Below, piece by piece: positions 32,472 through 58,578 of a stretch of 64,000 nt of DNA; positions within the stretch are counted from its first letter, which is position 1, and each line of letters starts with the position of its first letter. The notes under the pieces are model-generated. The model had not been told where the DNA came from. It was given only the letters and a program-made list of their open reading frames with translations, and ran no database searches. The position numbers were made by a program, and so were the translations under genes. Source of the stretch: Burkholderia sp. USMB20 (lineage in GTDB: Bacteria > Pseudomonadota > Gammaproteobacteria > Burkholderiales > Burkholderiaceae); NCBI RefSeq assembly GCF_000949135.2, contig NZ_JTAN02000021.1, positions 1-64,000 of the forward strand, read 5' to 3'.

Positions 32472-32505
32472 GCGCGGAATGTATCAGCCCCGAACCGGCG
32501 CTGGC

Positions 32506-32525: not shown

Positions 32526-32544
32526 TAACGTTGTCGGAGAATGA

Positions 32545-33264
32545 ATGGAACTGCGCTGGCAGGATGCCTACCAACAATTCAGCGCCGCGGAAGACGAGCA
32601 GCAGCTCTTCCAGCGGATCGCCGCTTATTCTAAACGCCTCGGCTTCGAATATTGCTGTTACGGCATTCGCGTGCCGTTGCCCGTGTCGAAGCCGGCCGTC
32701 GCGATCTTCGATACCTATCCGGACGGCTGGATGGCCCACTACCAGGCGCAGAACTACATCGAGATCGACTCGACGGTGCGTGACGGCGTGCTCAGCACCA
32801 ACATGATCGTCTGGCCGGACGTCGACCGGATCGATCCGTGTCCGCTTTGGCGGGACGCGCGCGACCACGGGCTGTCGGTGGGCGTCGCGCAGTCGAGCTG
32901 GGCGGCGCGCGGCGCGTTCGGGCTGCTGAGCATCGCGCGTCATGCGGACCGGCTCACGCCGGCCGAGATCAACATGCTGACGCTGCAGACCAACTGGCTC
33001 GCGAACCTGTCGCATTCGCTGATGAGCCGCTTCATGGTGCCGAAGCTGTCGCCCGAGGCGAGCGTCACGCTGACCGCGCGCGAGCGCGAGGTGCTGTGCT
33101 GGACGGCCGAAGGGAAGACCGCGTGCGAGATCGGCCAGATCCTCAGCATCTCGGAGCGCACGGTCAACTTCCACGTGAACAACATCCTCGAGAAGCTCGC
33201 CGCGACCAACAAGGTCCAGGCGGTGGTCAAGGCGATCTCGGCCGGGCTCATCGATACGCCCTGA
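32545..33264 (+). CDS. cepR: LuxR-family AHL-responsive regulator CepR
   Basis: A 239-residue LuxR-type regulator. The N-terminal autoinducer-binding domain contains the ligand-pocket segment FDTYPDGWMAHYQAQNYIEIDSTV (Tyr, Trp and Asp positions conserved). The C-terminal GerE-type HTH spans about 172-235 (LTAREREVLCWTAEGKTACEIGQIL, ERTVNFHVNNILEKL). It binds octanoyl-homoserine lactone and controls virulence, protease and siderophore genes across the genome. GGAG precedes the ATG. It is divergent from rsaM and convergent with the MgtC-family gene. Confidence 0.96.
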   Translation: MELRWQDAYQQFSAAEDEQQLFQRIAAYSKRLGFEYCCYGIRVPLPVSKPAVAIFDTYPDGWMAHYQAQNYIEIDSTVRDGVLSTNMIVWPDVDRIDPCPLWRDARDHGLSVGVAQSSWAARGAFGLLSIARHADRLTPAEINMLTLQTNWLANLSHSLMSRFMVPKLSPEASVTLTAREREVLCWTAEGKTACEIGQILSISERTVNFHVNNILEKLAATNKVQAVVKAISAGLIDTP

Positions 33265-43474: not shown

Positions 43475-44554
43475 TCAGAACGAGTGATGGATGCCGGTCA
43501 GCACGATCACCTGGTTCGCGGTGCTCGACGCGCCGGCCGTGAAGAACGCGGCCTTCGCGCCGCCCGAACCGTGCTCGTACAGCACGTTCGCATACAGCTG
43601 CGTGCGCTTCGACAGCGCATAGATGTCGCCGAGCTCGACCTGCGTCCAGCGGCGGCCGGCCAGCGTCGTGGTCGCCGCGCCGCCCGCGATCGTGTTGAAC
43701 GCGCTGCTGCGGTAGTTCACGCCCGCGTCGTAGCTCTGGAACGTGTCGGAAAACCCGTTCGACTGCATCTTCACGCGCGTGTAGAGGCCGTGCACGAGGA
43801 AGTCGCCGATCTGGTAGGACGCGCCCGCGCCGATGTTCTCGACCTTGTTCGCGATGTAGCCAGTCGCGGTGTTCTGCCCCTGGAACGACGTGATACCCGT
43901 CTGGCTGATCAGGATCGCGCGGTCGTGCTCGTTCGAGTAGACGGCCGACGCCTTGAACGGCCCGTTCGCGTAGTTCAGCGCGACCCCGACCGACTTGCCG
44001 GTCGAGAAGTTCGTCGTGTTGCCGAGCGCCATCGCCGCCGCGGCCGAGAAGCCGGCGAAGCTCGGCGAACGGTACTTGACCGCGTTGTTGTACGGCACGT
44101 TGCCGGTCGCGGCGAGCCCGTCGATGTTGCCCGGATGGAACGCATACCAGCTCAGCGCGAGATACGCGGTGCTGAGCGGATCGAGATAGTCGAACGTCAG
44201 CGGCGTCTGGCGGCCGAGCGTCAGCGTGCCGTAGCGGTCGGAGCTGAGGCCGACGAAGGCCGCGCGGTTCCAGATCGTGTTCGCGGTCGCGAACTGGCCG
44301 TTGTTCGTATAGAAGCCGTTTTCGAGCTGGAAGATCGCCGACAGGCCGCTGCCGAGGTCTTCCTTGCCTTTCAGCCCCCACCGGTCGGGTTGCGTGTTGC
44401 CCTGGATCATCGCCCACTTCGCGTGGCCGCCGACGTTGTTCACATAGGCGACGCCGGCATCCAGGCTGCCGTACAGCACCACGCTGCTTTGTGCCCAGGC
44501 GCCCGACATCGCGCCCATTCCGATGATTGCTGCTGCTACCGCTTGCTTGACCAT
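43475..44554 (-). CDS. Substrate-inducible porin of the aromatic-catabolism cluster
   Basis: A 359-residue Gram-negative porin. Signal peptide MVKQAVAAAIIGMGAMSGAWA, mature start QSSVVLYGSLDAGVAY, DRWGLKGKEDLGSGLSAIFQLENGF, and a terminal GIHHSF ending in Phe. Unlike the porin at 24.8 kb, its codon use is ordinary, suggesting conditional expression. AGGAG precedes the start. It is divergent from the catabolic operon and has a predicted promoter with the same operator, so it is probably the outer-membrane entry route for the cluster's substrate. Confidence 0.92.
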   Translation of the reverse strand: MVKQAVAAAIIGMGAMSGAWAQSSVVLYGSLDAGVAYVNNVGGHAKWAMIQGNTQPDRWGLKGKEDLGSGLSAIFQLENGFYTNNGQFATANTIWNRAAFVGLSSDRYGTLTLGRQTPLTFDYLDPLSTAYLALSWYAFHPGNIDGLAATGNVPYNNAVKYRSPSFAGFSAAAAMALGNTTNFSTGKSVGVALNYANGPFKASAVYSNEHDRAILISQTGITSFQGQNTATGYIANKVENIGAGASYQIGDFLVHGLYTRVKMQSNGFSDTFQSYDAGVNYRSSAFNTIAGGAATTTLAGRRWTQVELGDIYALSKRTQLYANVLYEHGSGGAKAAFFTAGASSTANQVIVLTGIHHSF

Positions 44555-44658
44555 TTGATCTCCTGACTCTCCAAACCTGATGAGAAACGTGCCGTGGCGG
44601 CGGGCGCGGGGGACGGCCGGCCGTCGCGCGTTCTTCACCACCGGGCGGGCATTTTTAA

Positions 44659-44676
44659 TGTTCCATATAAGGAACA
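44659..44676. promoter_or_regulatory. Operator copy 1: TGTTCC-N6-GGAACA, downstream of the porin promoter
   Basis: TGTTCC-ATATAA-GGAACA, a perfect 6-bp inverted repeat. On the porin strand it begins about 20 bp after the -10, near +14, where bound protein would block transcription. IclR-family sites often have this TTCC-N6-GGAA form. Confidence 0.75.
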
Positions 44677-44696
44677 ATGTGCCTCTGATGGAATGA

Positions 44697-44725
44697 AGTA
44701 TAGAGGTGTCGTGCGCCGGATCAAA
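44697..44725 (-). promoter_or_regulatory. Predicted promoter of the cluster porin
   Basis: On the minus strand, -35 TTTGAT (44720-44725), a 17-bp spacer and -10 TATACT (44697-44702). The start would be near 44,690, with the operator immediately downstream. Confidence 0.65.
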
Positions 44726-44897
44726 AATAAATTTATCGGGCCGGATGCGGGTGGTGACGATCCGCAACACGGGACCGAGCGTCCTGAAAAAAGGACTTAA
44801 ATCCCCGACACTAAACAAAAAATCACCTTTTTGAAGATGAGTGGCGGCGATCGTCGACCCGGCGGTCGGTGTTTTCCCTAGGACGTGCAGCTTTTTG

Positions 44898-44926
44898 TTT
44901 TACTCGTGGGAAGTCACTCCTATAAT
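44898..44926 (+). promoter_or_regulatory. Predicted promoter of the aromatic-catabolism operon
   Basis: A perfect -10 TATAAT (44921-44926) with a weak -35 TTTTAC (44898-44903) at 17 bp. The start would be near 44,933, about 70 nt before the ferredoxin gene. The poor -35 leaves room for activation. Confidence 0.65.
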
Positions 44927-44943
44927 CACCATCCATAAACTGC

Positions 44944-44961
44944 TGTTCCGGGTATGGAACA
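44944..44961. promoter_or_regulatory. Operator copy 2: TGTTCC-N6-GGAACA, downstream of the operon promoter
   Basis: TGTTCC-GGGTAT-GGAACA has arms identical to copy 1 and sits at about +11 to +28 of the catabolic operon transcript. Two identical dyads with equivalent placement at divergent promoters point to one shared repressor. Confidence 0.78.
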
Positions 44962-45004
44962 AACCCGGGGCGAACCGAGAGTCGATCAGAAGGAAGGGTG
45001 TGAG

Positions 45005-45322
45005 ATGTCTGAACAATGGGTTTGTGCCGGGCACGCCGGCGCGCTGTCGGAAGACACGCCGATCGAGTTCAAGCGGACCGACGGCGTCGAAATCGGGATC
45101 TACCGCGTCGGCGACGAGGTGTATGCGCTCGAGAACGTGTGCCCGCATGCCTACGCGCTGCTGACGCAGGGGTTCGTCGACGAAGGCACGGTCGAATGTC
45201 CTCTGCACGAGGCCGTGTTCGACATCAAGACGGGCGAATGCCTGAAGGGCCCGGGCGGGCGCGCGCTGAAGCAGTACGCGGTGCGCCTGGCTGGCGAGGA
45301 AATCCAGATCAAGGTGGAGTAA
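45005..45322 (+). CDS. Rieske-type [2Fe-2S] ferredoxin of an aromatic oxygenase
   Basis: A 105-residue soluble Rieske ferredoxin (BphA3/CarAc-like) with cluster ligands C46-x-H48 and C65-x2-H68. It carries electrons from the FAD reductase encoded at 55.8 kb to the terminal oxygenase at 45.7 kb. The ATG at 45005 follows AGGAAGG. It is the first gene of the catabolic operon, downstream of the operator. Confidence 0.92.
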   Translation: MSEQWVCAGHAGALSEDTPIEFKRTDGVEIGIYRVGDEVYALENVCPHAYALLTQGFVDEGTVECPLHEAVFDIKTGECLKGPGGRALKQYAVRLAGEEIQIKVE

Positions 45323-45325
45323 CCG

Positions 45326-45637
45326 ATGAAAGAAGCGACCGTCAACTTCAATCCGTTCCTGAAGCCGTGGGTGGCGCCGCAGCCGAACAACGTCGCCGGC
45401 AAGGGGCAGATCGAGATCCCGGGCCAGGTCGAGAACCGCATCTGGCAAAACCGCAAGGCCGAGCCGACGCAGTACGAGAACGATCTGGGCGATGCGCTCG
45501 AACGCGTGTTCGAGAGCGGCGCGACCGAGCTGGACGAGGTCGTCGCGGGCCTGAACCGCATCGGCTTCCGCGCGCCGGACGGCACGGCGTGGACGCCCGA
45601 GCGCTTCCGCGCCGAAATGGCCTCGCTGGCGGAATGA
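45326..45637 (+). CDS. Small recombinase-like helix-turn-helix protein of the oxygenase operon
   Basis: A 103-residue protein only 3 bp after the ferredoxin. The C-terminal half (DEVVAGLNRIGFRAPDGTAWTPERFRAEMASL) looks like the HTH found at the end of serine recombinases, although no catalytic recombinase domain is present. I recall similar small proteins encoded beside Rieske oxygenases in proteobacteria. The N-terminal half (NPFLKPWVAPQPNNVAGKGQIEIPGQVENRIWQNR) is unlike DNA-binding proteins. It may be an assembly or structural partner of the oxygenase. Its role is unknown. Confidence 0.75.
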   Translation: MKEATVNFNPFLKPWVAPQPNNVAGKGQIEIPGQVENRIWQNRKAEPTQYENDLGDALERVFESGATELDEVVAGLNRIGFRAPDGTAWTPERFRAEMASLAE

Positions 45638-45697
45638 GCGCACCGACCGCGCCGCACGCCTGAGCGCCGACCCGACAACCGCATCCGGAGCACACTG

Positions 45698-46768
45698 ATG
45701 ACGTCCCCCGCACAACACGAAACACAACACGACCCGGTCCGCGACTATCTCGACCGCGGCATCAAGAACTACTGGTATCCCGTTGCGCCCAGCTGGCAGG
45801 TGTCGAATGCGCCCGTCGGCCTCACGCGCCTGTCCGAGCAGATCGTGCTGTGGCGCGATCACGAAGGCAAAGTCCATGCGCTCGAAGACCGTTGCCCGCA
45901 CCGCGGCGCGCGCCTGTCGCTCGGCTGGAACCTCGGCGGCAGCATCGCGTGCTGGTATCACGGCATCGAAGTCGACGGCGGCGGCACGGTCAACCGCGTG
46001 CCGGCCGTATCGAACTGTCCGCTCGAAGGCACGAAGTGCGTGAAGTCGTATCCGGTCGAAGAGAAGGCCGGCGCGATCTTCCTGTGGTTTGGCGACGAAG
46101 CGCACGGCGAGCCGGCGCCGCTGAACCTGCCGGAAGAACTGGTCGCCGACGAATACGCGCACTTCCTGTGCGTGTCGAACTGGAAGTGCAATTACCAGTA
46201 CGCGATCGACAACGTGATGGACCCGATGCACGGCGCGTACCTGCACGCGACGTCGCACTCGATGGCCGAAGGCGACAAGCAGGCCGACATGCGCGTGCGG
46301 AAGACGGAAACGGGCCTGATGTTCGAGAAGATCGGCCAGCGCGACGTGAACTTCGACTGGGTCGAGCTCGGCGAAACCGGCTGCCTGTGGATGCGCCTCG
46401 CGATTCCGTACAAGCAGAAGTTCGGCCCGGGCGGCAACTTCGGGATCATCGGCTTCGCGACGCCGGTCGACGGCGACAACTGCCAGGTCTACTTCTGGCG
46501 TACGCGCAAGGTCAGCGGCTGGCAGCGCGACGTGTGGCGCTTCATGTACCGCAACCGCCTCGAAGGCCTGCACTGGGACGTGCTCGAGCAGGACCGCTAC
46601 GTCCTCGAGAGCCTCGCGCCGAACGCGCGCGATCACGAATACCTGTACCAGCACGACGTCGGCATGACGCGCGTGCGCCGGATGCTGCGCACGCGTGCGC
46701 AGGAGCATCTTTCCGCGCTCGACGCGCATCGCGCGGCGCAGGCCGCGGCGGAGCCGTCGAATGGCTGA
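45698..46768 (+). CDS. Rieske non-heme iron oxygenase, single-subunit (alpha) type
   Basis: A 356-residue terminal oxygenase with Rieske ligands C66-x-H68 and C85-x2-H88 and a mononuclear iron site D175, H178 and H183 in DNVMDPMHGAYLH, with bridging Asp171. No beta subunit is encoded, so it belongs to the homotrimeric class (phthalate, vanillate, carbazole or phenoxybenzoate type), not benzoate/biphenyl enzymes. With the separate Rieske ferredoxin and FAD reductase it makes a three-component system. It may hydroxylate or O-demethylate an aromatic acid. The substrate is unknown. Confidence 0.9.
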   Translation: MTSPAQHETQHDPVRDYLDRGIKNYWYPVAPSWQVSNAPVGLTRLSEQIVLWRDHEGKVHALEDRCPHRGARLSLGWNLGGSIACWYHGIEVDGGGTVNRVPAVSNCPLEGTKCVKSYPVEEKAGAIFLWFGDEAHGEPAPLNLPEELVADEYAHFLCVSNWKCNYQYAIDNVMDPMHGAYLHATSHSMAEGDKQADMRVRKTETGLMFEKIGQRDVNFDWVELGETGCLWMRLAIPYKQKFGPGGNFGIIGFATPVDGDNCQVYFWRTRKVSGWQRDVWRFMYRNRLEGLHWDVLEQDRYVLESLAPNARDHEYLYQHDVGMTRVRRMLRTRAQEHLSALDAHRAAQAAAEPSNG

Positions 46769-47531
46769 GTTCGCTCCGGTCGTGTCTCTGCCGGGGCGCC
46801 GCGTGCTCGTCACGGGCGGCGCGCGCGGTCTCGGCGCGGCGTTCGTGAAGGCGCTCGTCGAAGCGGGCGCGCAGGTCGCATTCGGCGACGTGCTCGCCGA
46901 AGAGGGCCGCGCGCTGGCCGCGCAGCTCACGCAAGCCGGCCACACCGCGCAATTCTTCACGCTCGACCTGGCCGATCCGGCGAGCGTCACGGCTTTCGTC
47001 GCGCAGGGCGCGGCGGCGCTCGGCGGCATCGACGCACTGATCAACAACGCGGCGATCACGAACTCGGGCGGCAAGCTGTCGACGGAGCTCGACGTGTCGA
47101 CCTGGGATGCCGTGATGAACGTGAACGTGCGCGGCGTCTGGCTCGTCAGCAATGCGGCGCTGCCGTACCTCGCGCAATCGGGCCGCGGCGCGATCGTGAA
47201 CCTCGCATCGGACACCGCGCTGTGGGGCGCGCCGAAGCTGCTCGCGTACGTCGCCAGCAAGGGCGCGGTGATCGCGATGACGCATGCGCAGGCGCGCGAG
47301 TTCGGCGCCCACGGCGTGACGGTCAACGCGATCGCGCCGGGGCTCACCGAAGTCGAGGCGACGGCCTACGTGCCGGCGGAACGCCACGCGTTCTACATGC
47401 AGGGCCGCGCGCTGACGCGCGCGCAGGTGCCCGAGGACGTGACGGGCCCCGTGCTGTTCCTGCTGTCGGACGGCGCGCGCTTCGTGACGGGTCAACTGCT
47501 GCCGGTGAACGGCGGCTTCGTAATGAATTGA
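46761..47531 (+). CDS. Classical SDR dehydrogenase of the aromatic operon
   Basis: A 256-residue SDR: TGGARGLG (18-25), Asp43 suggesting NAD+, NNAAI, and catalytic S150, Y163 and K167 (YVASK). Its likely job is oxidising a cis-dihydrodiol or an alcohol made by the oxygenase. Its start overlaps the oxygenase stop by 8 bp. It is distinct from the atypical SDR encoded at 50.0 kb. Confidence 0.9.
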   Translation: MAEFAPVVSLPGRRVLVTGGARGLGAAFVKALVEAGAQVAFGDVLAEEGRALAAQLTQAGHTAQFFTLDLADPASVTAFVAQGAAALGGIDALINNAAITNSGGKLSTELDVSTWDAVMNVNVRGVWLVSNAALPYLAQSGRGAIVNLASDTALWGAPKLLAYVASKGAVIAMTHAQAREFGAHGVTVNAIAPGLTEVEATAYVPAERHAFYMQGRALTRAQVPEDVTGPVLFLLSDGARFVTGQLLPVNGGFVMN

Positions 47532-47564
47532 ATTGAAGTTTTCACTCTGATGAAGGAGAGGACG

Positions 47565-48092
47565 ATGGCGGACGCCGATCTCGAACGCAAGTCGTGGGAC
47601 CAGCCGGAAGGCGCAAGCTTCAACGACTGGATGGAAGGGCGCGTCGCGCGCTACGCGACGCGGCGCTACGACTGGGACGCACTGAAGTTCCAGGCCGACT
47701 ACGACCCGAAGTACCGTCGTGCGCAGATGCGCTACGTCGGCACGGGCGGCACGGGCGTCGCGAAGGACGTCAACACGGTGCCGGCCGGCAACTTCACGTT
47801 CTCGACGATGGTCATTCCGGCCGGCAACATCGGCCCGAGCCACATCCATATCGACGTGGAAGAAATCTTCTTCGTGCTGCGCGGCAAGATGAAGGTGATC
47901 TGCGAGCGCGACGGCGAGACCTGGGAAGCGATCCTCGGCGAGCGCGACCTGATCTCGGTGCCGCCGGGCGTGTACCGCACGGAAATCAACATCGGCGAGG
48001 AAGACGCGCTGATGTGCGTGATGCTCGGTTCGCCGAAGCCCATCACGCCGACGTATCCGCCGGATTCGCCGCTCGCGAAGATCAAGCGCTGA
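47565..48092 (+). CDS. Cupin-domain protein
   Basis: A 175-residue single-cupin protein with metal-binding motif 1 around PSHIHIDVEEIFFVLRGKMKV (two His and Glu) and motif 2 around DLISVPPGVYRTEIN. The second motif lacks the usual His, so it may hold metal weakly or serve as an isomerase or binding protein. AAGGAGAG precedes the ATG. Within the operon it may act on a ring-cleavage product or quinone. No specific reaction is supported. Confidence 0.85.
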   Translation: MADADLERKSWDQPEGASFNDWMEGRVARYATRRYDWDALKFQADYDPKYRRAQMRYVGTGGTGVAKDVNTVPAGNFTFSTMVIPAGNIGPSHIHIDVEEIFFVLRGKMKVICERDGETWEAILGERDLISVPPGVYRTEINIGEEDALMCVMLGSPKPITPTYPPDSPLAKIKR

Positions 48093-48110
48093 GACGGGGC
48101 GGAGCAAGCA

Positions 48111-49022
48111 ATGCGTGTCATCGACAAACGTGAACGCGACCGCACCGCGGCGTTCGCAGCGCTGCTCGGGCAGTTTCCCGAACAGCGCTGCGCGGCCGGC
48201 GCGGCGGGCACGATCGGCTACCGTGAGGCTGGCGCAGGCGAGGCCGGCGCGCAGCATGCGGGCCGCGCGCTGCCCGTCGTGCTGCTGCACGGGATCGGCT
48301 CGGGCGCCGCATCGTGGGTGTGCCAGCTCGACTCGCTCGGCGCGTCGCGCCGCGTGCTCGCGTGGGATGCGCCCGGCTACGGCGTGTCGACGCCCGTGCA
48401 CGGCGCGTCGCCGGTCGCCGCCGATTACGCGGCGTCGCTGAACGCGTGGCTCGAGGCACTCGGCATCGAACGCTGCGTGCTGGTCGGGCATTCGCTCGGC
48501 GCGATCGTCGCGGGCGGGTTGACCCGCGTGATGCCCGCGCGGATCGCCGGCCTGCTGCTGATCTCGCCCGCGGGCGGTTACGGCAGCGCGCCCGCGGAAA
48601 CGCGCGACACGCGCCGCGATGCACGCCTCGCGATGCTCGACGAACTCGGCCCGGCCGGGCTCGCCGAACAGCGCAGCGGCAACATGCTGTCGGGTTTCGC
48701 GAGCGAGGATGCGCGTGCATGGGTACGCTGGAACATGGCGCGCATCGTGCCGGCCGGTTATGCGCAGGCCACGCATCTGCTCGCGAACGCCGATCTCGCG
48801 TCCGATCTCGCCGGCTTTCGCGGCCGCACGGCGGTGGCGGTCGGCGCGAACGACGCGATCACGCCGCCGGCTGCCTGCGAGCGGATCGCCGCTGCCGCGC
48901 ACGTCGGGCTGCAAGTGATTCCGCAGGCCGGTCATGCGGGCTACGTGGAAGCGCCGGCGGTCTACTCGTCGCTGATCGACGCGTTCTGCCGTCAATGCGA
49001 CCGTCAACGGGGGCTGGAATGA
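48111..49022 (+). CDS. Alpha/beta-hydrolase (meta-cleavage product hydrolase-like)
   Basis: A 303-residue hydrolase with oxyanion segment LLHGIGSGAASW, nucleophile S128 in GHSLG, acid D248 in GANDAITPP and base H275 in QAGHAGYVE. The order and spacing match C-C bond hydrolases such as BphD, which split ring-fission products; esterases are the alternative. The pairing with an extradiol dioxygenase in the same operon favours a C-C hydrolase. GGAG precedes the ATG. Confidence 0.87.
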   Translation: MRVIDKRERDRTAAFAALLGQFPEQRCAAGAAGTIGYREAGAGEAGAQHAGRALPVVLLHGIGSGAASWVCQLDSLGASRRVLAWDAPGYGVSTPVHGASPVAADYAASLNAWLEALGIERCVLVGHSLGAIVAGGLTRVMPARIAGLLLISPAGGYGSAPAETRDTRRDARLAMLDELGPAGLAEQRSGNMLSGFASEDARAWVRWNMARIVPAGYAQATHLLANADLASDLAGFRGRTAVAVGANDAITPPAACERIAAAAHVGLQVIPQAGHAGYVEAPAVYSSLIDAFCRQCDRQRGLE

Positions 49023-49026
49023 ACTA

Positions 49027-49056
49027 CCCCCACGCTCACATTCGTTCGCTTGGGGG
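49027..49056. repeat. Intergenic hairpin (CCCCCA-n-TGGGGG)
   Basis: CCCCCACGC and CGCTTGGGGG pair with one mismatch around a loop, in the 100-bp gap between hydrolase and IclR genes. It resembles short C/G-ended repeats common between Burkholderia genes (from memory). It could reduce read-through or mark a former insertion point. Confidence 0.5.
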
Positions 49057-49122
49057 GGCGCAGCCCGCTCAATCCCGACATGCATTTCAACGTGCCCCTG
49101 GGGCGGCCCGACCGGAGGCATC

Positions 49123-49980
49123 ATGAGCGAACCGTTGCAACAACAGGATGCGGACACCGCGAAGTCCGAGGCCAACTACGTGGTGCCGGGCCTCGAACGC
49201 GGTTTGCGGATCCTCGCCGAATTCTCGCCGCGCGAGCCGGTGCTCGGCGCGCCGGAACTGTCCAAGCGCCTCGGCATTCCGCGCACGACGGTGTTCCGTC
49301 TTCTGCAGACGCTCGAATCGCTCGGCTTTCTCGAGCGCGCGGACAAGGATCGCAACTACAAGCTCGGCATCGCCGTGCTGCGGCTCGGCTTCGAATACCT
49401 GAGCTCGCTCGAGCTGACCGATCTCGGCCTGCCGGTGATCGAGAGCCTGCGCGATGCGACCGGCTTCACGACGCACATCGTGATCCGTGACGGCCGCGAC
49501 GTGGTGTTCGTCGCGAAGGCGCAGAGCCAGTCGCCGGTGTTCAGCTCGATTCGCGTGAACGTCGGCACGCGGCTGCCCGCGCATGCGACGACCCACGGCC
49601 ACGTTCTGATGGGCGACCTGTCGCTGAAGGAGTTGCGGGCGCTGTATCCGGAAGGCGCGCTGAACCGGATGACGAGTGCGACGCCGGAATCCGTCGACGC
49701 GCTCTACGAAGTGATCCGGGAAGATGCGCTGCGCGGCTACGGCGTCAGCAATTCGTCGTTCGAGCGCGGCATTTCGGTGGTCACGGCGCCGGTGCGCAAC
49801 GACACGCAGAGGATCGTCGCGTGCATCACGGTGACGGTGCCGCGGCCGGAGATCGACGCGGCGCTGATCGCCGACGGCCTGATCGACAAGGTGCAGCGCG
49901 CGGCGGCGGAATTGTCGCGGCGGCTCAATTACCGCTCGGATGACGAGCACACGTTTCTCAAGGCTTTAGGACTGCGATGA
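49123..49980 (+). CDS. IclR-family transcriptional regulator (paralogue 2, within the operon)
   Basis: A 285-residue IclR regulator with a winged helix (YVVPGLERGLRILAEFS, LSKRLGIPRTTVFRLLQTLESLGFL, about 20-80) and a ligand domain (HIVIRDGRDVVFVAKAQS, TTHGHVLMGDL). GGAGG precedes the ATG. It is cotranscribed with catabolic genes: its stop overlaps the next start by 4 bp (ATGA). It is a close paralogue of the IclR protein encoded at 42.4 kb but has a much shorter N-terminal tail. It probably binds the TGTTCC-N6-GGAACA dyads and so autoregulates; this is inferred. Confidence 0.9.
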   Translation: MSEPLQQQDADTAKSEANYVVPGLERGLRILAEFSPREPVLGAPELSKRLGIPRTTVFRLLQTLESLGFLERADKDRNYKLGIAVLRLGFEYLSSLELTDLGLPVIESLRDATGFTTHIVIRDGRDVVFVAKAQSQSPVFSSIRVNVGTRLPAHATTHGHVLMGDLSLKELRALYPEGALNRMTSATPESVDALYEVIREDALRGYGVSNSSFERGISVVTAPVRNDTQRIVACITVTVPRPEIDAALIADGLIDKVQRAAAELSRRLNYRSDDEHTFLKALGLR

Positions 49981-50766
49981 TTCAGATCGATCTGACCGGG
50001 CAGGTGGCGGTGGTGACGGGCGGTTCGTCCGGCATCGGCCTCGCGACTGCCGAACGGTTCCTGCAGGCCGGCGCATCGGTCGCGATTTGCGGCCGCGACG
50101 GCGAGCGTCTCGCGCGCGCCGAGGCGATGCTCGGCGAGAAATATACGGGCGCGCCGCTGCTCGCGGTGCGCTGCAACGTGCTCGACGAAGCCGACGTGGC
50201 CGCGTTCGCGCAGGCCGTGTCCGACCGCTTCGGCCGCGCCGACATGCTCGTCAACAACGCAGGCCAGGGCCGCGTGTCGACTTTCGTCGACACGACCGAC
50301 GACGCATGGCGCGAAGAGCTCGAACTGAAGTACTTCAGCATCATCCGCCCGACGCGCGCATTCCTGCCGCTGTTGCGCGATGCGGCCGCGCCGACGATCA
50401 CCTGCGTGAATTCGCTGCTCGCGCTGCAGCCGGAGCCGCACATGGTCGCGACGTCGTCGGCGCGCGCGGGCGTGCTGAGCCTCGTGAAGTCGCTCGCGAC
50501 CGAACTCGCGCCGCAGCGCATCCGCGTGAACTCGATCCTGATCGGCATCGTGGAGTCGGGGCAGTGGCGCCGCCGCTACGAAGCGCAGGCGCCGGCCGGC
50601 GAAAGCTGGGAGGACTGGACGGGCGCGCTCGCCCGCAAGAAGAACATTCCGCTGAACCGCTTCGGCAAGCCCGACGAGGCAGCCTGGGCACTTTTTTATC
50701 TCGCAACGCATCTGTCGTCCTACACGACGGGCAGCCATATCGACGTTTCTGGAGGCTTTGCACGCC

Positions 50767-50774
<8 letters not shown>
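49977..50774 (+). CDS. Atypical SDR lacking the YxxxK catalytic pair
   Basis: A 265-residue SDR-fold protein with an intact cofactor motif TGGSSGIG (14-21), VNNAG and Ser146. Where classical SDRs have Tyr-x3-Lys it has T159-S-S-A-R163. Either another residue (Arg163 or a nearby His) does the chemistry, or it binds NAD(P) without classical redox activity. A subset of SDRs share an ATS-x-ARAG motif, so this is a divergent lineage, not simple decay. It overlaps both neighbours (4 and 8 bp), so it is tightly coupled in the operon. Confidence 0.88.
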
Positions 50775-53258
<2,484 letters not shown>

Positions 53259-53369
53259 GCAGGCAGACAACCCGGACAACCAGGCCGACGCGGCCATTCG
53301 GGCCATTGAACGGCCGCCGGCGCCACGGCGCGGGCGGCTGCGCAGAGACAGATTTGTGGGACTTGTGAC

Positions 53370-54860
53370 ATGACTCCATTCGATACGAGCCTCGTACCCA
53401 ACGGCGACATCCTGATCGGCGGCGAGTGGCGGCGCGGCCGCGGCGCGCCTTACGCGAGCATCTATCCGGCCGACCAGTCGCTGAACATGGAAGTCTCGAC
53501 GGCGAACGCGGAAGACGCGGCCGACGCCGTCGTGGCCGCCGACGCAGCGTGGCGGCGCGCCGACTGGGCCGGCCTCAAGCCGCACCAGCGCGCGCTGGTG
53601 CTGTACCGGATCGCCGACCTGATCATGCAGCGTCACGAGGCGCTCGCGAACCTGCAACGCCGCGACAACGGCAAGCCGATCGGCGAGACGCGCGTGCTGG
53701 TGGCGAGTGCGGCCAACACGTTCCGCTATTTCGCGGCGTGCCTGGAAACGCTCGACGAAGAACTGACGCCGTCGCGCGGCGACTACCTGACGATGAGCGT
53801 GCACGAGCCGATCGGCGTGATCGCCGCGATCACGCCGTGGAATTCGCCGATCGCGTCCGACGCGCAGAAGCTCGCGCCGGCGCTCGCCGGCGGCAACGCG
53901 GTCGTGCTCAAGCCTGCCGAGGTGACGCCGCTCGTGTCGCTCGCGCTGGCCCGCATCTGCGAGGAAGCCGGCGTGCCGAAGGGCGTGCTGAGCGTGCTGC
54001 CGGGCAAGGGCTCGGTGATCGGCGACGTGCTGGTGCGCCATCCGCTCGTGAAGAAGGTGTCGTTTACCGGCGGCACCGAAGTGGGTCGCGGCATCGCGCG
54101 CATCGCGGCGGAAAAGCTGATGCCCGTATCGCTCGAACTCGGCGGCAAGTCGCCGACGATCGTATGCGACGACGCGGATCTCGATCACGCGGTGAACGGC
54201 GTGCTGTACGGCATCTTCAGCTCGTCGGGCGAAGCGTGCATCGCGGGTTCGCGGCTGTTCGTGCAGCGCTCGGTATACGACGCGTTCATGAAGCGCCTGG
54301 TCGCGGGCGCACGCAAGCTGCGCGTGGGCGACCCGACGCGGCCCGACACGCAGATGGGCCCGCTGATCACCGCGAAGCATCGCGAGTCGGTGGAACGCTA
54401 CGTCGCGCTCGGGCTGGAGGAAGGCGGCCGCCTGCTGTGCGGCGGCGAACGGCCGTCGGGCGACGGGCGCGAGGACGGCTTCTTCTACCAGCCGACGATT
54501 CTCGAAGGCTTGCCGAACAGCGCGCGCATCTGCCAGGAGGAAATCTTCGGGCCGGTGCTGGTCGCGATGCCGTTCGACGACGAAGCGTCGCTGATCGCGC
54601 AGGCGAACGACAGCGTGTTCGGCCTCGCCGCCGGCATCTGGACCCGCGACTACAAGCGCGCATGGCGCATCGCGCGGGCACTGGAGACGGGCACCGTCTG
54701 GATCAACACGTACAAGCTGTTTTCGATCTCCACGCCGTTCTCGGGCTGGAAGGAGAGCGGGATGGGCCGCGAGAAGGGCCGTCTCGGCATCCGCGAGTAC
54801 ATGCAGCAGAAAAGCCTGTACTGGGGCTTGAACGACGCGCCGCTGCCGTGGGCGAACTGA
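53370..54860 (+). CDS. NAD(P)+-dependent aldehyde dehydrogenase
   Basis: A 496-residue ALDH with catalytic C290 (GEACIAGSRL), general base E256 in LELGGKSP, the cofactor loop FTGGTEVGRGIAR, PWNSPIASDAQKLAPALAGGNAVVLKP, and a C-terminal ESGMGREKGRLGI. It resembles betaine/hydroxymuconic-semialdehyde dehydrogenases. In this operon it may oxidise a semialdehyde from ring fission or the aldehyde product of the ThDP enzyme. A 111-bp gap separates it from the broken upstream gene, larger than other gaps in the operon. Confidence 0.92.
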   Translation: MTPFDTSLVPNGDILIGGEWRRGRGAPYASIYPADQSLNMEVSTANAEDAADAVVAADAAWRRADWAGLKPHQRALVLYRIADLIMQRHEALANLQRRDNGKPIGETRVLVASAANTFRYFAACLETLDEELTPSRGDYLTMSVHEPIGVIAAITPWNSPIASDAQKLAPALAGGNAVVLKPAEVTPLVSLALARICEEAGVPKGVLSVLPGKGSVIGDVLVRHPLVKKVSFTGGTEVGRGIARIAAEKLMPVSLELGGKSPTIVCDDADLDHAVNGVLYGIFSSSGEACIAGSRLFVQRSVYDAFMKRLVAGARKLRVGDPTRPDTQMGPLITAKHRESVERYVALGLEEGGRLLCGGERPSGDGREDGFFYQPTILEGLPNSARICQEEIFGPVLVAMPFDDEASLIAQANDSVFGLAAGIWTRDYKRAWRIARALETGTVWINTYKLFSISTPFSGWKESGMGREKGRLGIREYMQQKSLYWGLNDAPLPWAN

Positions 54861-54878
54861 GCGAAGGGGAATGACGCA

Positions 54879-55841
54879 ATGAGCATCTTGGGTATCGAGC
54901 AGATCACGTACGGTGTCGACGACCTCGCGACGTGCCGGCGCTTTTTCGCCGACTGGGGCCTGAAGGAAGTCGCGCACGACGACACGCGCGCACGTTTCGA
55001 AACGCTGAACGGCTGCACCGTGCTGGTCGTGAAGGCCGACGATCCGTCGCTGCCGCCCGCGTTCGAAGCGGGCCCGACGCTGCGCGAAGTCACGTGGGGC
55101 GTCGCGACGCAGCAGGAAGTCGACGCGCTGCGCACGAAGCTGGCCGGCCAGCCCGGCTATTACGCGCAGGACGATGCGGTCGGCTGCATCGATCCGAACG
55201 GGATGGCGATCCGCATCGAGGTGACGCGCAAGCGCGCGCTCAACATCACCGGCTCGCCGTCGAACGTGTGGGGCCGGACGGCGCGGGTCGACCAGCCGAG
55301 CCCGATCTATGCGCGCGCCGAGCCGGTCGAGGTCGGGCACGTCGTGTTCTTCACGAACTGCCTCGACGCGCAGGAGAAGTTCTATCACGAGCTGCTCGGC
55401 TTCGAGACGTCGGACCGCTATCCGGGCCGCGGCGCGTTCATGCGCTGCGCGCCGCACGGCGGCCACCACGACCTGTTCCTGCTCGCGTTGCCCAATGGCA
55501 AGCGCGGCCTGAACCACGTCGCGTTCACCGTGCGCGACATCCACGAAGTGTTCGGCGGCGGCATGCACATCGACCGCTGCGGCTGGGAAACGCAGCTCGG
55601 CCCGGGGCGTCATCCGGTCTCGTCCGCGTATTTCTGGTACTTCCAGAACCCGGCCGGCGCGCTGATCGAGTACTACGCGGACGAAGACGTGCTGACGCCC
55701 GAATGGCAGCCGCGCGAATTCGAACCGGGCCCGACCGTGTTCGCCGAATGGGCCGTCGACGGCGGCCTCGACGGCAACACGCGCCGGCAGAAGAATGCGA
55801 AGGCGCCGGAAGGCAAGTTCATGACGGAGCGCAAATCATGA
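54879..55841 (+). CDS. Type I extradiol ring-cleavage dioxygenase (VOC superfamily)
   Basis: A 320-residue two-domain VOC protein. The C-terminal domain keeps the Fe(II) 2-His-1-carboxylate set: H154 (VGHVVFFT), H213 (LNHVAFTV) and E264 (LIEYYAD). The N-terminal domain (QITYGVDDLATCRRFFADWGL) is the non-catalytic repeat. Such enzymes open catecholic rings beside the hydroxyls. This makes meta-cleavage the likely central step of the pathway. AAGGGGA precedes the ATG, and the stop overlaps the next start. Confidence 0.88.
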   Translation: MSILGIEQITYGVDDLATCRRFFADWGLKEVAHDDTRARFETLNGCTVLVVKADDPSLPPAFEAGPTLREVTWGVATQQEVDALRTKLAGQPGYYAQDDAVGCIDPNGMAIRIEVTRKRALNITGSPSNVWGRTARVDQPSPIYARAEPVEVGHVVFFTNCLDAQEKFYHELLGFETSDRYPGRGAFMRCAPHGGHHDLFLLALPNGKRGLNHVAFTVRDIHEVFGGGMHIDRCGWETQLGPGRHPVSSAYFWYFQNPAGALIEYYADEDVLTPEWQPREFEPGPTVFAEWAVDGGLDGNTRRQKNAKAPEGKFMTERKS

Positions 55842-57082
55842 GCGCAACGAACTCGCAGGAACCGGCCGCGCCTCGCACGGTCGTCGTGATCGGCGGCGGC
55901 CAGGCCGCCGGCTGGGTGCTGAAGACGCTGCGCGCGGAGGGCTTCGCGGGCCGTCTCGTGATGATCGCCGACGAGCCGCACCTGCCGTACGAGCGTCCGC
56001 CGCTGTCGAAGGCCGTGCTGGCCGGTGACGCCGACATCGAGACCGTGCGCGTCGTGCGCCCGGACGAATTCGCCGCGCTGAACGTCGAGGCATGGCAGCC
56101 GGAACGCGCGGTGTCGATCGACCGTGCGCGCCGCGTGGTGAAAATCGAAAGCGGCCTCGAAGTCGAATACGACCGCCTCGTGATCGCGACCGGCGGCACG
56201 TCGCGCCGCTTGCCTGACTCGATCGTCAGGACCCCGAACCTGCATTACCTGCGTACGCTCGACGAAGCGGCCGCGCTCGGCGAGAAACTGCGCGCGAGCC
56301 GGCGTGTGCTCGTGATCGGCGGCGGCTGGATCGGCCTCGAGGTCGCGGCGACCGCGCGCAAGCTCGGCGTCGAAGCGGTGGTCGTCGAAGGCGCGCCGCG
56401 GCTGTGCGGCCGCTCGGTGCCGCAGGTCGTGTCGGACTTCCTGCTCGACCTGCATCGCGCGAACGGTGTCGACGTGCGCCTCGGCGCGGCGCTCGCATCG
56501 CTCGACGCGCAGCCGGACGACGCATCGAAGGTGCGCGCGACGCTTGCGGACGGCACGACGATCGACGCCGATTTCGCGGTGGCCGGCATCGGCCTCGCGC
56601 TGAACGCGACACTCGCGAGCGACGCGGGCCTCGCCGTCGACGACGGCATCGTGGTCGACGAATTCGGCGCGACCAGCGATCCGGCGATCTTCGCGTGCGG
56701 CGACGTCGCGAACCATCACAACGGCTGGCTGAAGCGGCGCGTGCGGCTCGAATCGTGGGCGAACGCGCAGAACCAGGCGATCGCGGCCGCGAAGGCCGTG
56801 CTCGGCGTGCGCGCGCCGTACGCCGAGATTCCGTGGTTCTGGTCCGATCAATACGACGTGAACCTGCAGATCCTCGGCGATCTGCCGGCCGATGCGCAGC
56901 TCGTCGTGCGCGGCGATCTCGCCGCGCGACGCGCGACGCTGTTTTTCGTGGGCGACGGACATGTGAGAGGTGTCATCGCCATCAACAACGCGCGCGAGCT
57001 CAAGCTCGCACGCAAGTGGATGAACCAGGGCCGGGCAGTGAACACGGAAGCCCTGGCGGACACGACCCAAGCGCTTGCCTGA
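55838..57082 (+). CDS. FAD-dependent ferredoxin reductase (BphA4/putidaredoxin reductase-like)
   Basis: A 414-residue flavoprotein with FAD motif VVIGGGQAAGWVLKTLR (about 15-31), LPYERPPLSKAVLAGD, NAD motif VLVIGGGWIGLEVAATARKLG (near 150) and ACGDVANHHN for FAD. The C-terminal domain (IPWFWSDQYDVNLQILGD) is diagnostic of oxygenase-coupled ferredoxin reductases. It would reduce the Rieske ferredoxin encoded at the start of the operon, completing a three-component oxygenase. It overlaps the dioxygenase gene by 4 bp. Confidence 0.92.
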   Translation: MSATNSQEPAAPRTVVVIGGGQAAGWVLKTLRAEGFAGRLVMIADEPHLPYERPPLSKAVLAGDADIETVRVVRPDEFAALNVEAWQPERAVSIDRARRVVKIESGLEVEYDRLVIATGGTSRRLPDSIVRTPNLHYLRTLDEAAALGEKLRASRRVLVIGGGWIGLEVAATARKLGVEAVVVEGAPRLCGRSVPQVVSDFLLDLHRANGVDVRLGAALASLDAQPDDASKVRATLADGTTIDADFAVAGIGLALNATLASDAGLAVDDGIVVDEFGATSDPAIFACGDVANHHNGWLKRRVRLESWANAQNQAIAAAKAVLGVRAPYAEIPWFWSDQYDVNLQILGDLPADAQLVVRGDLAARRATLFFVGDGHVRGVIAINNARELKLARKWMNQGRAVNTEALADTTQALA

Positions 57083-57120
57083 CCGGCGAAACCGGTACAA
57101 AGACCCAGGAGACACCCCGC

Positions 57121-58521
57121 ATGAGCACTTTCGACAACGTCGTGGCCGGCAGGGCCACGATGGAAGCTGCCGCCTCCACGCCCGGCGCGATCATCGCGCG
57201 GCTCGAGCGGCTTCCGGCCAACGCGATGCAGATCCGCGCGCGCGTGCTGATCGGCACCGCGACGTTCTTCGACGGCTTCGACGTGATCACGATCGCGGCG
57301 ACGCTGCCGCTGCTGATTCACAAGTGGGGGCTGTCGCCGACGCAGATCGGCATGCTGATCGCGTCCGGCGCGATCGGCCAGCTGATCGGCGCATTCCTGT
57401 TTCCCGCGCTCGCGGAGAAGCATGGCCGCGTGAAGGCGATCGCGTGGAGTTCCGCGGTGATCGGCATCACCAGCATCGCGTGCGGCTTCGCGCCGACGTT
57501 CGAGGTGTTCGTGCTGCTGCGGATCCTGCAGGGGCTCGGCCTCGGTGGCGAGCTGCCGGTCGCGGCGACGTACATCAACGAAATCACGCGCGCGCACGGC
57601 CGCGGCCGCTTCGTGCTGCTGTACGAAATCGTGTTCCCGATCGGCCTGCTGGTATCGATGGCGCTCGGCGCGTGGCTCGTGCCGCGGTTCGGCTGGGAGA
57701 TCATGTACTTCGTCGGCGGGCTGCCGCTGATCCTCGCGCTGGTGCTCACGCGTCTGGTGCCGGAATCGCCGCGCTGGCTCGCGTCGCGCGGGCGGCTCCC
57801 GGAAGCCGGGCGCGCGGTCGGCGTGTTCGAAGCGTCGGTGCGCGGCGAACTGCCGCCGGTCACGCAGGTGGCCGCGTACGACGAGATGGTGCGCCAGCAC
57901 CCGAAGCGCCGGATGAGCGACCTGTTCAGCGCCGCGTATCGCAAGCGCACGCTCGCGGTGGCGACGCTGTGGGCGACCTGCGGGTTCATCCAGTACGGGC
58001 TGTCCACGTGGCTGCCGACGATCTACAAGAACTTCTATCACGCGCCGCTGCAGCTCGCGCTGAATCTCGCGGTGATCGGCTCGGTGATGGGCGTGCTCGG
58101 TTCGCTCGCGTCCGCGCTGCTGGTCGACAAGCTCGGCCGCAAGCCGGTGATCGTGTGGTCGTTCGTGCTGTGCGCGCTGTCGCTGGCGTTCGCGGGCATC
58201 TACCACGCGTCGTCGGTGTACGTCGTCGCGACCTTTTGCTCGCTGTCGCTGGGGCTGATGGCATCGGGCTTCATCACCGCGTACGTCTATACGCCGGAAC
58301 AGTATCCGACGAGCATCCGCGCGTCGGGCTGCGGGCTCGGCAGCGCGTGGCTGAAGATCGCGTCGTTCGCGGCGCCGATGATCGTGCCGCACGCGATCAT
58401 CGGCGGCAATCTCGCGCCGGCGTTCTACCTGATCGGCATCGTGCCGCTGATCGCCGCCGTGACCGTTCATTTCGTCGGGATCGAGACGAAGGGGAAGGTG
58501 CTCGAAGCGCTCGAGGCATAA
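57121..58521 (+). CDS. MFS importer, aromatic acid:H+ symporter (AAHS)-like
   Basis: A 466-residue, 12-TM transporter with LIGTATFFDGFDVITIAATLPLL in TM1, FLFPALAEKHGRVKAI in the TM2-3 loop, LQGLGLGGELPVAATYINEITRAHGRGRFV and VPESPRWLASRGR in the central loop. These point to the sugar/aromatic-acid symporter branch. As the last gene of the operon, before a strong terminator, it is the likely inner-membrane importer of the pathway substrate, probably an aromatic or heteroaromatic acid. Confidence 0.9.
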   Translation: MSTFDNVVAGRATMEAAASTPGAIIARLERLPANAMQIRARVLIGTATFFDGFDVITIAATLPLLIHKWGLSPTQIGMLIASGAIGQLIGAFLFPALAEKHGRVKAIAWSSAVIGITSIACGFAPTFEVFVLLRILQGLGLGGELPVAATYINEITRAHGRGRFVLLYEIVFPIGLLVSMALGAWLVPRFGWEIMYFVGGLPLILALVLTRLVPESPRWLASRGRLPEAGRAVGVFEASVRGELPPVTQVAAYDEMVRQHPKRRMSDLFSAAYRKRTLAVATLWATCGFIQYGLSTWLPTIYKNFYHAPLQLALNLAVIGSVMGVLGSLASALLVDKLGRKPVIVWSFVLCALSLAFAGIYHASSVYVVATFCSLSLGLMASGFITAYVYTPEQYPTSIRASGCGLGSAWLKIASFAAPMIVPHAIIGGNLAPAFYLIGIVPLIAAVTVHFVGIETKGKVLEALEA

Positions 58522-58551
58522 GCGCGGCGCGCGGCAAAGGCGATGTGGAAG

Positions 58552-58578
58552 GCCCGGACGATGTGTCCGGGCTTTTTT
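58552..58578 (+). terminator. Rho-independent terminator of the aromatic-catabolism operon
   Basis: A perfect 8-bp stem GCCCGGAC/GTCCGGGC (58552-58559 and 58565-58572), a 5-nt loop, then six Ts. It is 31 bp after the transporter stop. Confidence 0.92.

What the first reader, a model, noticed from the sequence alone, without database searches (positions are those of the whole stretch)
44555..58578. Uncharacterised aromatic meta-cleavage cluster with an unusual enzyme set
One long, mostly overlapping unit encodes a three-component Rieske oxygenase (homomeric terminal oxygenase, Rieske ferredoxin, FAD reductase), two SDRs, a type I extradiol dioxygenase, a C-C-type hydrolase and an aldehyde dehydrogenase. 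This is the logic of a meta pathway. It also contains a ThDP enzyme, an aspartate-dehydrogenase-like gene, a cupin and a small recombinase-like HTH protein, which I do not know from any named pathway. Hydratase and aldolase genes of standard meta pathways are absent; the ThDP enzyme might replace them. An amino-dehydrogenase-like gene hints at a nitrogen-containing ring or amino-acid-derived aromatic substrate.
Basis: partly seen in the sequence, partly recalled or inferred. Interest (0 to 1): 0.9.

Follow-up and report, generated by a model that had tools for sequence, protein, structure and literature searches.

The report
Likely kynurenic acid breakdown gene cluster
A conserved set of about fourteen bacterial genes, found in variants from Burkholderia to Klebsiella and Streptomyces, looks like a recipe for breaking down a nitrogen-containing ring compound, most likely kynurenic acid, a tryptophan by-product for which I found no bacterial breakdown genes named in the papers I could search.

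Summary
Window 45005-58521 is one gene run: Rieske ferredoxin, HTH_62 protein, Rieske oxygenase, SDR1, cupin, alpha/beta hydrolase, IclR, SDR2, ThDP enzyme, aspartate dehydrogenase (AspDH), ALDH, type I extradiol dioxygenase (EDO), FAD reductase, MFS carrier; a porin is divergent. No hydratase or aldolase was found. AspDH is broken here by two frame changes; intact copies exist in relatives. The set is not strain-specific: 56 of 61 sampled same-genus genomes carry the ThDP gene (one partial), and related sets occur in Comamonadaceae, Pandoraea, Acinetobacter, Klebsiella, Vibrio, Novosphingobium and Streptomyces. A palindrome (TGTTCC-N6-GGAACA) flanks both divergent promoter-like sites; in 6 whole genomes its 7 exact copies all lie at this locus. 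Best reading: catabolism of kynurenate (4-hydroxyquinoline-2-carboxylate). The enzyme classes fit the recalled steps of that classical pathway, and hydrolysis of its last pyridine would release iminosuccinate, the AspDH substrate, plus glutarate. The cluster's AspDH from Klebsiella is published as a specific aspartate dehydrogenase. SDR2, and a different SDR that replaces it elsewhere, both lack the catalytic Tyr/Lys. The substrate is inferred, not shown.

The parts
43475..44554 (-). Porin, divergent from the operon
   Evidence: Porin_4 match 2.4e-46; also divergent beside the cluster in Burkholderia, Paraburkholderia and Caballeronia loci
44659..44676 (.). Palindrome TGTTCC-N6-GGAACA, predicted IclR operator (porin side)
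   Evidence: exact match; 3 matches at up to 1 mismatch in the window against 0.02 expected; conserved in part of the relatives
44697..44724 (-). Sigma-70-like promoter toward the porin
   Evidence: consensus scan only, 9 of 12
44899..44926 (+). Sigma-70-like promoter toward the operon
   Evidence: consensus scan only, 10 of 12
44944..44961 (.). Palindrome TGTTCC-N6-GGAACA, predicted IclR operator (operon side)
   Evidence: exact match, 285 bases from the first
45005..45322 (+). Rieske-type ferredoxin
   Evidence: Rieske 6.1e-19
45326..45637 (+). HTH_62 small protein, companion of the Rieske oxygenase
   Evidence: PF20552 7.8e-30; within 400 bases upstream of Rieske in 48 of 54; model with a three-helix C-terminal part
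45698..46768 (+). Terminal Rieske oxygenase without a beta-subunit gene (proposed kynurenate 7,8-dioxygenase)
   Evidence: Rieske + VanA_C; best solved-structure matches: dicamba O-demethylase, a putative phthalate dioxygenase, carbazole dioxygenase
46761..47531 (+). SDR1, canonical Tyr-Lys (proposed dihydrodiol dehydrogenase)
   Evidence: Y/K in 92 of 92 relatives; overlaps the Rieske gene
47565..48092 (+). Cupin, HxH...E site with Arg where a third His is expected (proposed pyridine-ring step)
   Evidence: Cupin_2 1.6e-10; R138 in 101 of 101 sequences
48111..49022 (+). Alpha/beta hydrolase with conserved Ser, Asp, His (proposed C-C or ring hydrolase)
   Evidence: S128, D248, H275 at least 95% conserved in 98 loci
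49123..49980 (+). IclR-family regulator (PcaR/PcaU-like)
   Evidence: TIGR02431 164 bits, below its cut-off of 285
49977..50774 (+). SDR2, atypical Lys-Ser-Thr-Arg site (proposed side-chain C=C reductase)
   Evidence: NF005468 above cut-off; T/R in 41 of 41; relative 3lf1/3lf2, Q9HYA2
50767..52437 (+). ThDP enzyme (proposed 2-oxo acid decarboxylase)
   Evidence: NF005470 975.7 bits, cut-off 495, a family without stated function
52430..53258 (+). L-aspartate dehydrogenase gene, broken here by two frame changes
   Evidence: two family halves in two frames; unbroken in relatives; Klebsiella ortholog characterised
53370..54860 (+). Aldehyde dehydrogenase
   Evidence: BADH/HpaE-like, below equivalog cut-offs
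54879..55841 (+). Type I extradiol dioxygenase (proposed 7,8-dihydroxykynurenate 8,8a-dioxygenase)
   Evidence: H154, H213, E264 in 43 of 43; HpaD/C23O-like, below cut-offs
55838..57082 (+). FAD ferredoxin reductase (HcaD/AndAa-like)
   Evidence: HcaD-type 389 bits, below the 450 cut-off; Reductase_C
57121..58521 (+). MFS carrier, aromatic acid:H+ symporter-like
   Evidence: TIGR00895 222.6 bits, below its cut-off of 419

Best explanation
The locus encodes a self-contained pathway, probably IclR-controlled, that imports and degrades kynurenate. (1) Rieske oxygenase, ferredoxin and reductase, with the HTH_62 protein as accessory, make the 7,8-dihydrodiol. (2) SDR1 oxidises it to 7,8-dihydroxykynurenate. 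(3) EDO cleaves C8-C8a, giving 5-(3-carboxy-3-oxopropenyl)-4,6-dihydroxypicolinate. (4) SDR2 saturates the side chain. (5) The ThDP enzyme decarboxylates the 2-oxo acid to an aldehyde. (6) ALDH gives 5-(2-carboxyethyl)-4,6-dihydroxypicolinate. (7) Cupin and alpha/beta hydrolase open the lactam and cut the C-C bond, giving glutarate and iminosuccinate. (8) AspDH reduces iminosuccinate to aspartate, or it hydrolyses spontaneously to oxaloacetate and ammonia. Carbon: 10 = CO2 + 5 + 4. Shown here: gene set, conservation, active-site residues, palindrome. Shown in print: activity of the Klebsiella AspDH. Recalled: the intermediates and order of steps 1-6. Inferred: all assignments of genes to steps, steps 7-8, and the substrate.
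For: The enzyme classes fit the recalled classical pathway, with no hydratase or aldolase. Names of several intermediates occur in print, two of the three papers placing one in tryptophan metabolism (passages), and the 1961 and 1963 enzymology is cited by title in reference lists (passages). The ends of KpnAspDH of PMC5554190, read from its primers, match the cluster's AspDH of Klebsiella L139 (the middle was not compared); that enzyme prefers oxaloacetate (pyruvate 3.9%, 2-oxoglutarate 3.5%) and has a Km for ammonium of 52.6 mM, which would fit a pre-formed imine as true substrate. By my reasoning, a ring half N-C(COOH)=CH-C(OH), as in kynurenate, is what would yield iminosuccinate. A Rid-family hydrolase lies in 15 of 69 loci of at least 17 kb. 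SDR2 and a different SDR that replaces it both have Thr/Ser and Arg for Tyr and Lys (41 of 41 and 35 of 35), never together (0 of 103 loci), so an unusual reduction seems required. Exact palindrome: 7 sites in 6 whole genomes, all at this locus. The separate carrier-Rieske operon of G058 also carries a 1-mismatch site, which ties oxygenase and lower genes together.
Against: No assay or growth datum. No kynurenine- or tryptophan-pathway gene was recognised among recurrent neighbours (judged mostly by eye). No paper found naming these genes for kynurenate. The cupin has no proven step, and that an SDR of this kind reduces C=C is a guess. In this window AspDH is broken. L077 and L100 lack AspDH, hydrolase, SDR1 and Rieske matches in the 20 kb held. 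EDO matches occur in only 38 and Rieske matches in 46 of 69 loci; loci are cut at 20 kb, but the six Pandoraea loci of that set have no EDO match in what is held. Vibrio, Streptomyces and G516 have an EDO only 27-32% alike. The palindrome is absent in 20 of 44 sequences scanned. The nearest solved Rieske protein is an O-demethylase.
Confidence: 0.5

Rival explanations
1. Same enzymatic logic but another nitrogen heteroaromatic (xanthurenate, quinaldate, another quinoline or a fused N-ring acid) is the main substrate; kynurenate is secondary or not used.
For: An FAD phenol-type monooxygenase (3-hydroxybenzoate 6-monooxygenase/salicylate family, below cut-offs) occurs in 24 of 69 loci of at least 17 kb and never with the GR-type reductase (0 of 103 loci). 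Vibrio L140 has it, in pieces, with lower genes but no Rieske or SDR1 match, as expected if a ring that already bears one OH (such as xanthurenate) is hydroxylated to the same catechol. A CODH-type molybdenum hydroxylase lies beside three MAG loci.
Against: The window and the 12 same-genus loci of its type (L021-L029, L031, L034, L035) have the Rieske plus SDR1 entry and no FAD monooxygenase match, so their substrate should be a ring needing two hydroxyls. But G058, also same genus, has such a monooxygenase (65%).
Confidence: 0.25
2. A nitrogen-free aromatic meta pathway (for example a phenylpropanoid or naphthalene-like acid); AspDH only balances amino groups or serves NAD synthesis.
For: ALDH, EDO and hydrolase resemble ordinary meta-pathway enzymes; the MFS resembles aromatic-acid symporters; record annotations label AspDH with NAD biosynthesis.
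Against: AspDH matches occur in 65 of 69 loci, and the cluster copy is the only Asp_DH_C gene in 8 of 8 genomes checked; Rid-family hydrolases recur (15 of 69).
Confidence: 0.15
3. A Rieske O-demethylase pathway for methoxylated aromatics: the oxygenase unmasks a phenol rather than dihydroxylating a ring.
For: Best solved match of the Rieske protein is dicamba O-demethylase (90.7 bits); VanA_C domain.
Against: An SDR with Tyr/Lys (92 of 92) directly follows the oxygenase and would have no clear role after demethylation; loci with an FAD monooxygenase suggest ring hydroxylation.
Confidence: 0.07

Closest known systems
Kynurenate (quinoline) pathway of Pseudomonas, enzymology of 1961-1963 (EC 1.14.99.2, 1.3.1.18, 1.13.11.10 and following; recalled)
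   Same: Predicted reactions: dihydroxylation, dihydrodiol oxidation, 8,8a cleavage, side-chain reduction, decarboxylation, aldehyde oxidation
   Different: No genes known to me; steps after 5-(2-carboxyethyl)-4,6-dihydroxypicolinate are my proposal
Lumichrome/riboflavin catabolic cluster of Nocardioides (lum genes, PMC12746152)
   Same: Combines a Rieske system, an extradiol dioxygenase and a ThDP-dependent decarboxylase on an N-heteroaromatic (passages read)
   Different: Uses a P450, amidases, a xanthine oxidase-type enzyme and a two-subunit Rieske; the ThDP enzyme decarboxylates the heterocycle; 'aldehyde dehydrogenase' does not occur in the main text
Isoflavone ifc cluster, and naringenin fde as cited there (PMC11069340)
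   Same: Glyoxalase-fold ring-cleavage enzyme, alpha/beta hydrolase, cupins (passages read)
   Different: FAD monooxygenase entry; 'Rieske', 'thiamine' and 'aspartate dehydrogenase' do not occur in the main text
Standard catechol/homoprotocatechuate meta pathways (xyl, dmp, hpa; recalled)
   Same: EDO, ALDH and hydrolase classes
   Different: No hydratase or aldolase; equivalog scores far below cut-off (HpaD 64 of 321, catechol 2,3-dioxygenase 52 of 320, BphD 41 of 462)
SDR Q9HYA2 (PDB 3lf1, 3lf2; P. aeruginosa PAO1, organism recalled)
   Same: Relative of SDR2 (350 bits over 261 residues) with the same Lys-Ser-Thr-Arg residues in the alignment; a published 'atypical catalytic center' is recalled
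   Different: Structure known, substrate unknown to me; a like cluster at PA3497-PA3515 is recalled, not checked here

Membership tests
Kynurenate (quinoline) pathway | Ring-dihydroxylating oxygenase with electron-transfer chain | tested here: met
   Rieske oxygenase, ferredoxin, FAD reductase; class only, specificity untested
Kynurenate (quinoline) pathway | Dihydrodiol dehydrogenase | tested here: inconclusive
   SDR1 with Tyr/Lys in 92 of 92, overlapping the oxygenase gene; broad SDR class, no equivalog above cut-off among those shown
Kynurenate (quinoline) pathway | Extradiol dioxygenase for an o-dihydroxy ring | tested here: met
   H154, H213, E264 in 43 of 43; class only
Kynurenate (quinoline) pathway | Side-chain reductase, 2-oxo acid decarboxylase, aldehyde dehydrogenase | tested here: inconclusive
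   SDR2, ThDP enzyme and ALDH present; that SDR2 reduces C=C and the ThDP enzyme decarboxylates is inference
Kynurenate (quinoline) pathway | Turnover of kynurenate and 7,8-dihydroxykynurenate | not testable with these tools
   needs assay
Kynurenate (quinoline) pathway | Genomic link to kynurenine or tryptophan genes (supporting, not defining) | tested here: inconclusive
   none recognised among recurrent neighbours, judged mostly by eye
Standard meta-cleavage pathway | 2-hydroxypentadienoate hydratase and 4-hydroxy-2-oxovalerate aldolase | tested here: not met
   each gene of the run matches another family; elsewhere in the genome not searched
L-aspartate dehydrogenase | Asp_DH_C domain and aspartate/oxaloacetate activity | tested here: met
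   domain 1.5e-30; a relative's copy matches 2dc1 and 1j5p; activity published for the Klebsiella ortholog; the window's copy is broken
Site-specific recombinase (HTH_62 label) | Catalytic recombinase domain or mobile context | tested here: not met
   only HTH_62 matched; no structural match with E<=0.001 (model pTM 0.55); context is the Rieske gene

The most novel reading that the evidence does not exclude
This is the missing gene set of the bacterial kynurenate pathway, known enzymatically since the 1960s: a widespread regulon that ends in glutarate and iminosuccinate, uses AspDH to capture ring nitrogen as aspartate, has two interchangeable entries (Rieske plus dihydrodiol dehydrogenase for kynurenate; FAD monooxygenase for xanthurenate) and two distantly related Tyr/Lys-less SDRs for one unusual side-chain reduction.
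Probability: 0.4. Interest if true: 0.78.

Novelty: new variant of a known kind. Interest (0 to 1): 0.62.

Why it matters
Kynurenate is a tryptophan metabolite with receptor activity in animals and occurs in food plants and microbes. If right, orphan enzymes get genes; gene families now labelled only generically (ThDP enzyme, SDR2, cupin, HTH_62) get a shared role; a published AspDH used in biotechnology gets its natural context; and kynurenate removal by soil and gut bacteria becomes predictable from genomes. Even if the substrate is another N-heteroaromatic, a conserved catabolic gene set spanning Alpha-, Beta- and Gammaproteobacteria and Streptomyces has been delimited, with a testable operator and chemistry.

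Tried and rejected
Rejected: standard meta pathway (no hydratase or aldolase in the run; equivalog scores far below cut-offs). Rejected as cluster relatives: the 35-38% EDO hits of G263 and G357, which sit in meta clusters with hydratase-like genes by eye. Riboflavin/lumichrome and isoflavone clusters were compared from passages and found different. A search for PA locus numbers found no paper. One-mismatch palindrome sites elsewhere: of the many listed, three were inspected; they lie by LysR-type genes (by eye) and look unrelated. The molybdenum hydroxylase near L099, L103 and L113 is CODH-like and, in L113, on the opposite strand, so weak. The HTH_62 fold search gave nothing with E<=0.001. 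The cupin model is moderate (pLDDT 71.5) and its fold search was never accepted. Literature searches for kynurenate genes found none (PMC papers under CC0, CC BY and CC BY-SA only; judged from listings and passages of a few papers). Recalled, from no call: EC/KEGG details and order of the kynurenate pathway, the PA3497-PA3515 layout, the 'atypical catalytic center' paper, the reclassification of kynurenate strain ATCC 11299b as Delftia acidovorans, and the names CepI/CepR/RsaM.
Full report
OBSERVATION. The run 45005-58521 on the + strand holds fourteen genes, with a divergent porin at 43475-44554. Family matches and GC3 of 0.84-0.93 for the 13 unbroken genes support them. Overlaps and short gaps, one promoter-like site upstream and none inside fit one transcription unit; terminator-like sites are at chance level (10 found, 9.1 expected). 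AspDH is the exception: two frame changes about 70 bases apart divide it, while in 8 of 8 aligned relatives both parts share a frame. I cannot tell sequencing error from decay.

DISTRIBUTION. Reading the listing (101 genomes), 55 of the 61 same-genus genomes have the full ThDP protein at 83-99% identity, one (G033) a partial one at 95%, and five (G023, G031, G032, G034, G046) only distant matches. Outside the genus the set is patchy: EDO matched at E<=1e-30 in 3 of 369 class genomes, of which only G001 is an ortholog in the same setting, and the cupin at E<=1e-25 in 9 of 398 phylum genomes. Annotated records show the set in Acinetobacter baumannii, Klebsiella pneumoniae, Vibrio nigripulchritudo (without Rieske and SDR1), Novosphingobium resinovorum and Caballeronia; the Streptomyces chartreusis record has no annotation but holds ALDH, EDO-like, AspDH, hydrolase, cupin, SDR1, SDR2, ThDP, HTH_62 and Rieske matches. 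Over its 14 kb the window is 93.3% identical to Burkholderia cenocepacia and 92.0% to B. arboris records, so it comes from a cepacia-complex-like species.

MODULES. In Klebsiella and Acinetobacter the order is ferredoxin, HTH_62, Rieske, SDR1, EDO, reductase, carrier and then cupin, hydrolase, SDR2, AspDH, ALDH, ThDP, with an IclR gene between SDR1 and EDO in Klebsiella; this suggests an upper and a lower part. Of 103 tabulated loci (L109 and L043 dropped as duplicates), 69 are at least 17 kb; two of these 69, L135 and L167, overlap in one genome. In the 69: ThDP 67, cupin 67, hydrolase 66, SDR1 65, AspDH 65, ALDH 63, Rieske 46, EDO 38, SDR2 36, alternative SDR 27, FAD monooxygenase 24, GR-type reductase 23, Rid-family hydrolase 15 (identity cut-offs were set by me). 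Missing genes may lie beyond the ends held. GR-type reductase and FAD monooxygenase never share a locus, nor do the two SDRs, in all 103; kinship among the loci contributes to this. G058 has core genes at 68-92% but a Rieske at 54% with a VanB-type reductase, so oxygenase modules are exchanged; it also has the FAD monooxygenase. Vibrio L140 lacks Rieske and SDR1 and carries the FAD monooxygenase in pieces. L077 and L100 carry cupin, ThDP, alternative SDR, FAD monooxygenase and EDO, and L100 also ALDH, without Rieske, SDR1, hydrolase or AspDH in the 20 kb held. HTH_62 lies within 400 bases upstream of 48 of 54 Rieske genes; of the other six, two are cut by a contig end and four have it about 1.7-2.7 kb upstream (L034 and L109 are one contig counted twice).

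ACTIVE SITES. SDR1 keeps Tyr and Lys in 92 of 92. SDR2 has Thr and Arg in those places in 41 of 41 (window included); the alternative SDR has Ser and Arg in 35 of 35. SDR2's best solved match is Q9HYA2, with the same Lys-Ser-Thr-Arg residues; I recall it being described as an atypical catalytic centre of P. aeruginosa. EDO keeps H154, H213, E264 in 43 of 43. The cupin keeps H93, H95, E99, E100 but has Arg at the expected place of the third His in 101 of 101, so a dioxygenase role seems less likely than a hydrolytic or lyase role (inference). These sets hold only sequences above the identity and coverage cut-offs of the call.

REGULATION. TGTTCC-N6-GGAACA occurs exactly at 44659 and 44944, 285 bases apart, one beside each divergent promoter-like site; 3 matches at up to one mismatch in the window against 0.02 expected, the third (4621) elsewhere. 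Of 44 sequences scanned, 24 have at least one match at up to one mismatch and 20 have none, among them one Paraburkholderia, the seven Pandoraea and seven Comamonadaceae loci tried and five from other groups (L034/L109 and L030/L123 are one contig or genome each). In 6 whole genomes the exact palindrome occurs 2, 2, 1, 1, 1 and 0 times, each time at this locus. At up to one mismatch 17-26 sites per genome appear against 4-7 for a reversed control; three inspected look unrelated. In G058 the separate carrier-Rieske operon bears a one-mismatch site. Binding by the cluster's IclR is inferred.

ASPARTATE DEHYDROGENASE. The primers printed in PMC5554190 (section 5 read) translate to ends MKKVMLIGY and CRELA, identical to the ends of the cluster's AspDH in Klebsiella L139. 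That enzyme was purified: oxaloacetate 100%, pyruvate 3.9%, 2-oxoglutarate 3.5%, Km for ammonium 52.6 mM (passages). The Delftia enzyme of the same paper ends TAIAI, as does the cluster AspDH of G646, whose first residues differ. Asp_DH_C is single-copy in 8 of 8 genomes checked. A specific enzyme with poor ammonium affinity inside a catabolic operon suggests that the pathway itself delivers iminosuccinate (inference; the same paper reports low activity of the Ralstonia enzyme in its hands).

DEDUCTION OF SUBSTRATE. EDO followed by a reductase, a 2-oxo acid decarboxylase and an aldehyde dehydrogenase is what would be needed to shorten a 2-oxobutenoate side chain left by cleavage at a ring-fusion carbon. 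If the other ring must then yield iminosuccinate, it should carry N-C(COOH)=CH-C(OH). Together this is 7,8-dihydroxy-4-hydroxyquinoline-2-carboxylate, the known first catechol of kynurenate breakdown. Names of intermediates appear in print (passages), and the 1961 and 1963 papers are cited by title (passages); the pathway order is recalled. The carbon count closes: CO2, glutarate, iminosuccinate. The broken AspDH of the window need not stop such a pathway, because iminosuccinate hydrolyses by itself; this is inference.

VERDICT. The cluster is a widespread catabolic gene set; kynurenate is the best single substrate at about 0.5, another N-heteroaromatic about 0.25.

Noticed in passing
window 30155-30212 (-): Betaproteobacteria toxic small RNA (RF02278, 61.2 bits).
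   Followed up: no
window 31207-33264: By eye a LuxI-like synthase (203 aa, -), a 147-aa gene (-) and a LuxR-like regulator (239 aa, +), resembling a cepI/rsaM-like/cepR layout (names recalled; ORFs, no family scan).
   Followed up: no
window 8549-12962: By eye an RND-type efflux pair next to a MerR-like gene (ORFs, no family scan).
   Followed up: no
records H27-H29: In B. arboris, B. stagnalis and B. multivorans records the 14-kb query spans about 15.7-16.6 kb, so some 2 kb extra lies inside or beside the operon there.
   Followed up: no
record H34, NZ_CP066767.1: A 19.7-kb B. ambifaria 'plasmid' record begins inside this operon's end (query 9477-14023 at 94.6%); perhaps a chromosomal fragment.
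   Followed up: no
L064:17465-17812 and 13 other loci: A conserved protein of about 116 aa without Pfam or NCBIfam match at the limits used sits beside the cluster in 14 loci.
   Followed up: partly
L140 (Vibrio nigripulchritudo plasmid): ThDP and FAD monooxygenase genes of the cluster appear split across frames, so this copy may be decaying.
   Followed up: partly
L142 (Streptomyces chartreusis): An unannotated version of the cluster in an actinomycete.
   Followed up: partly
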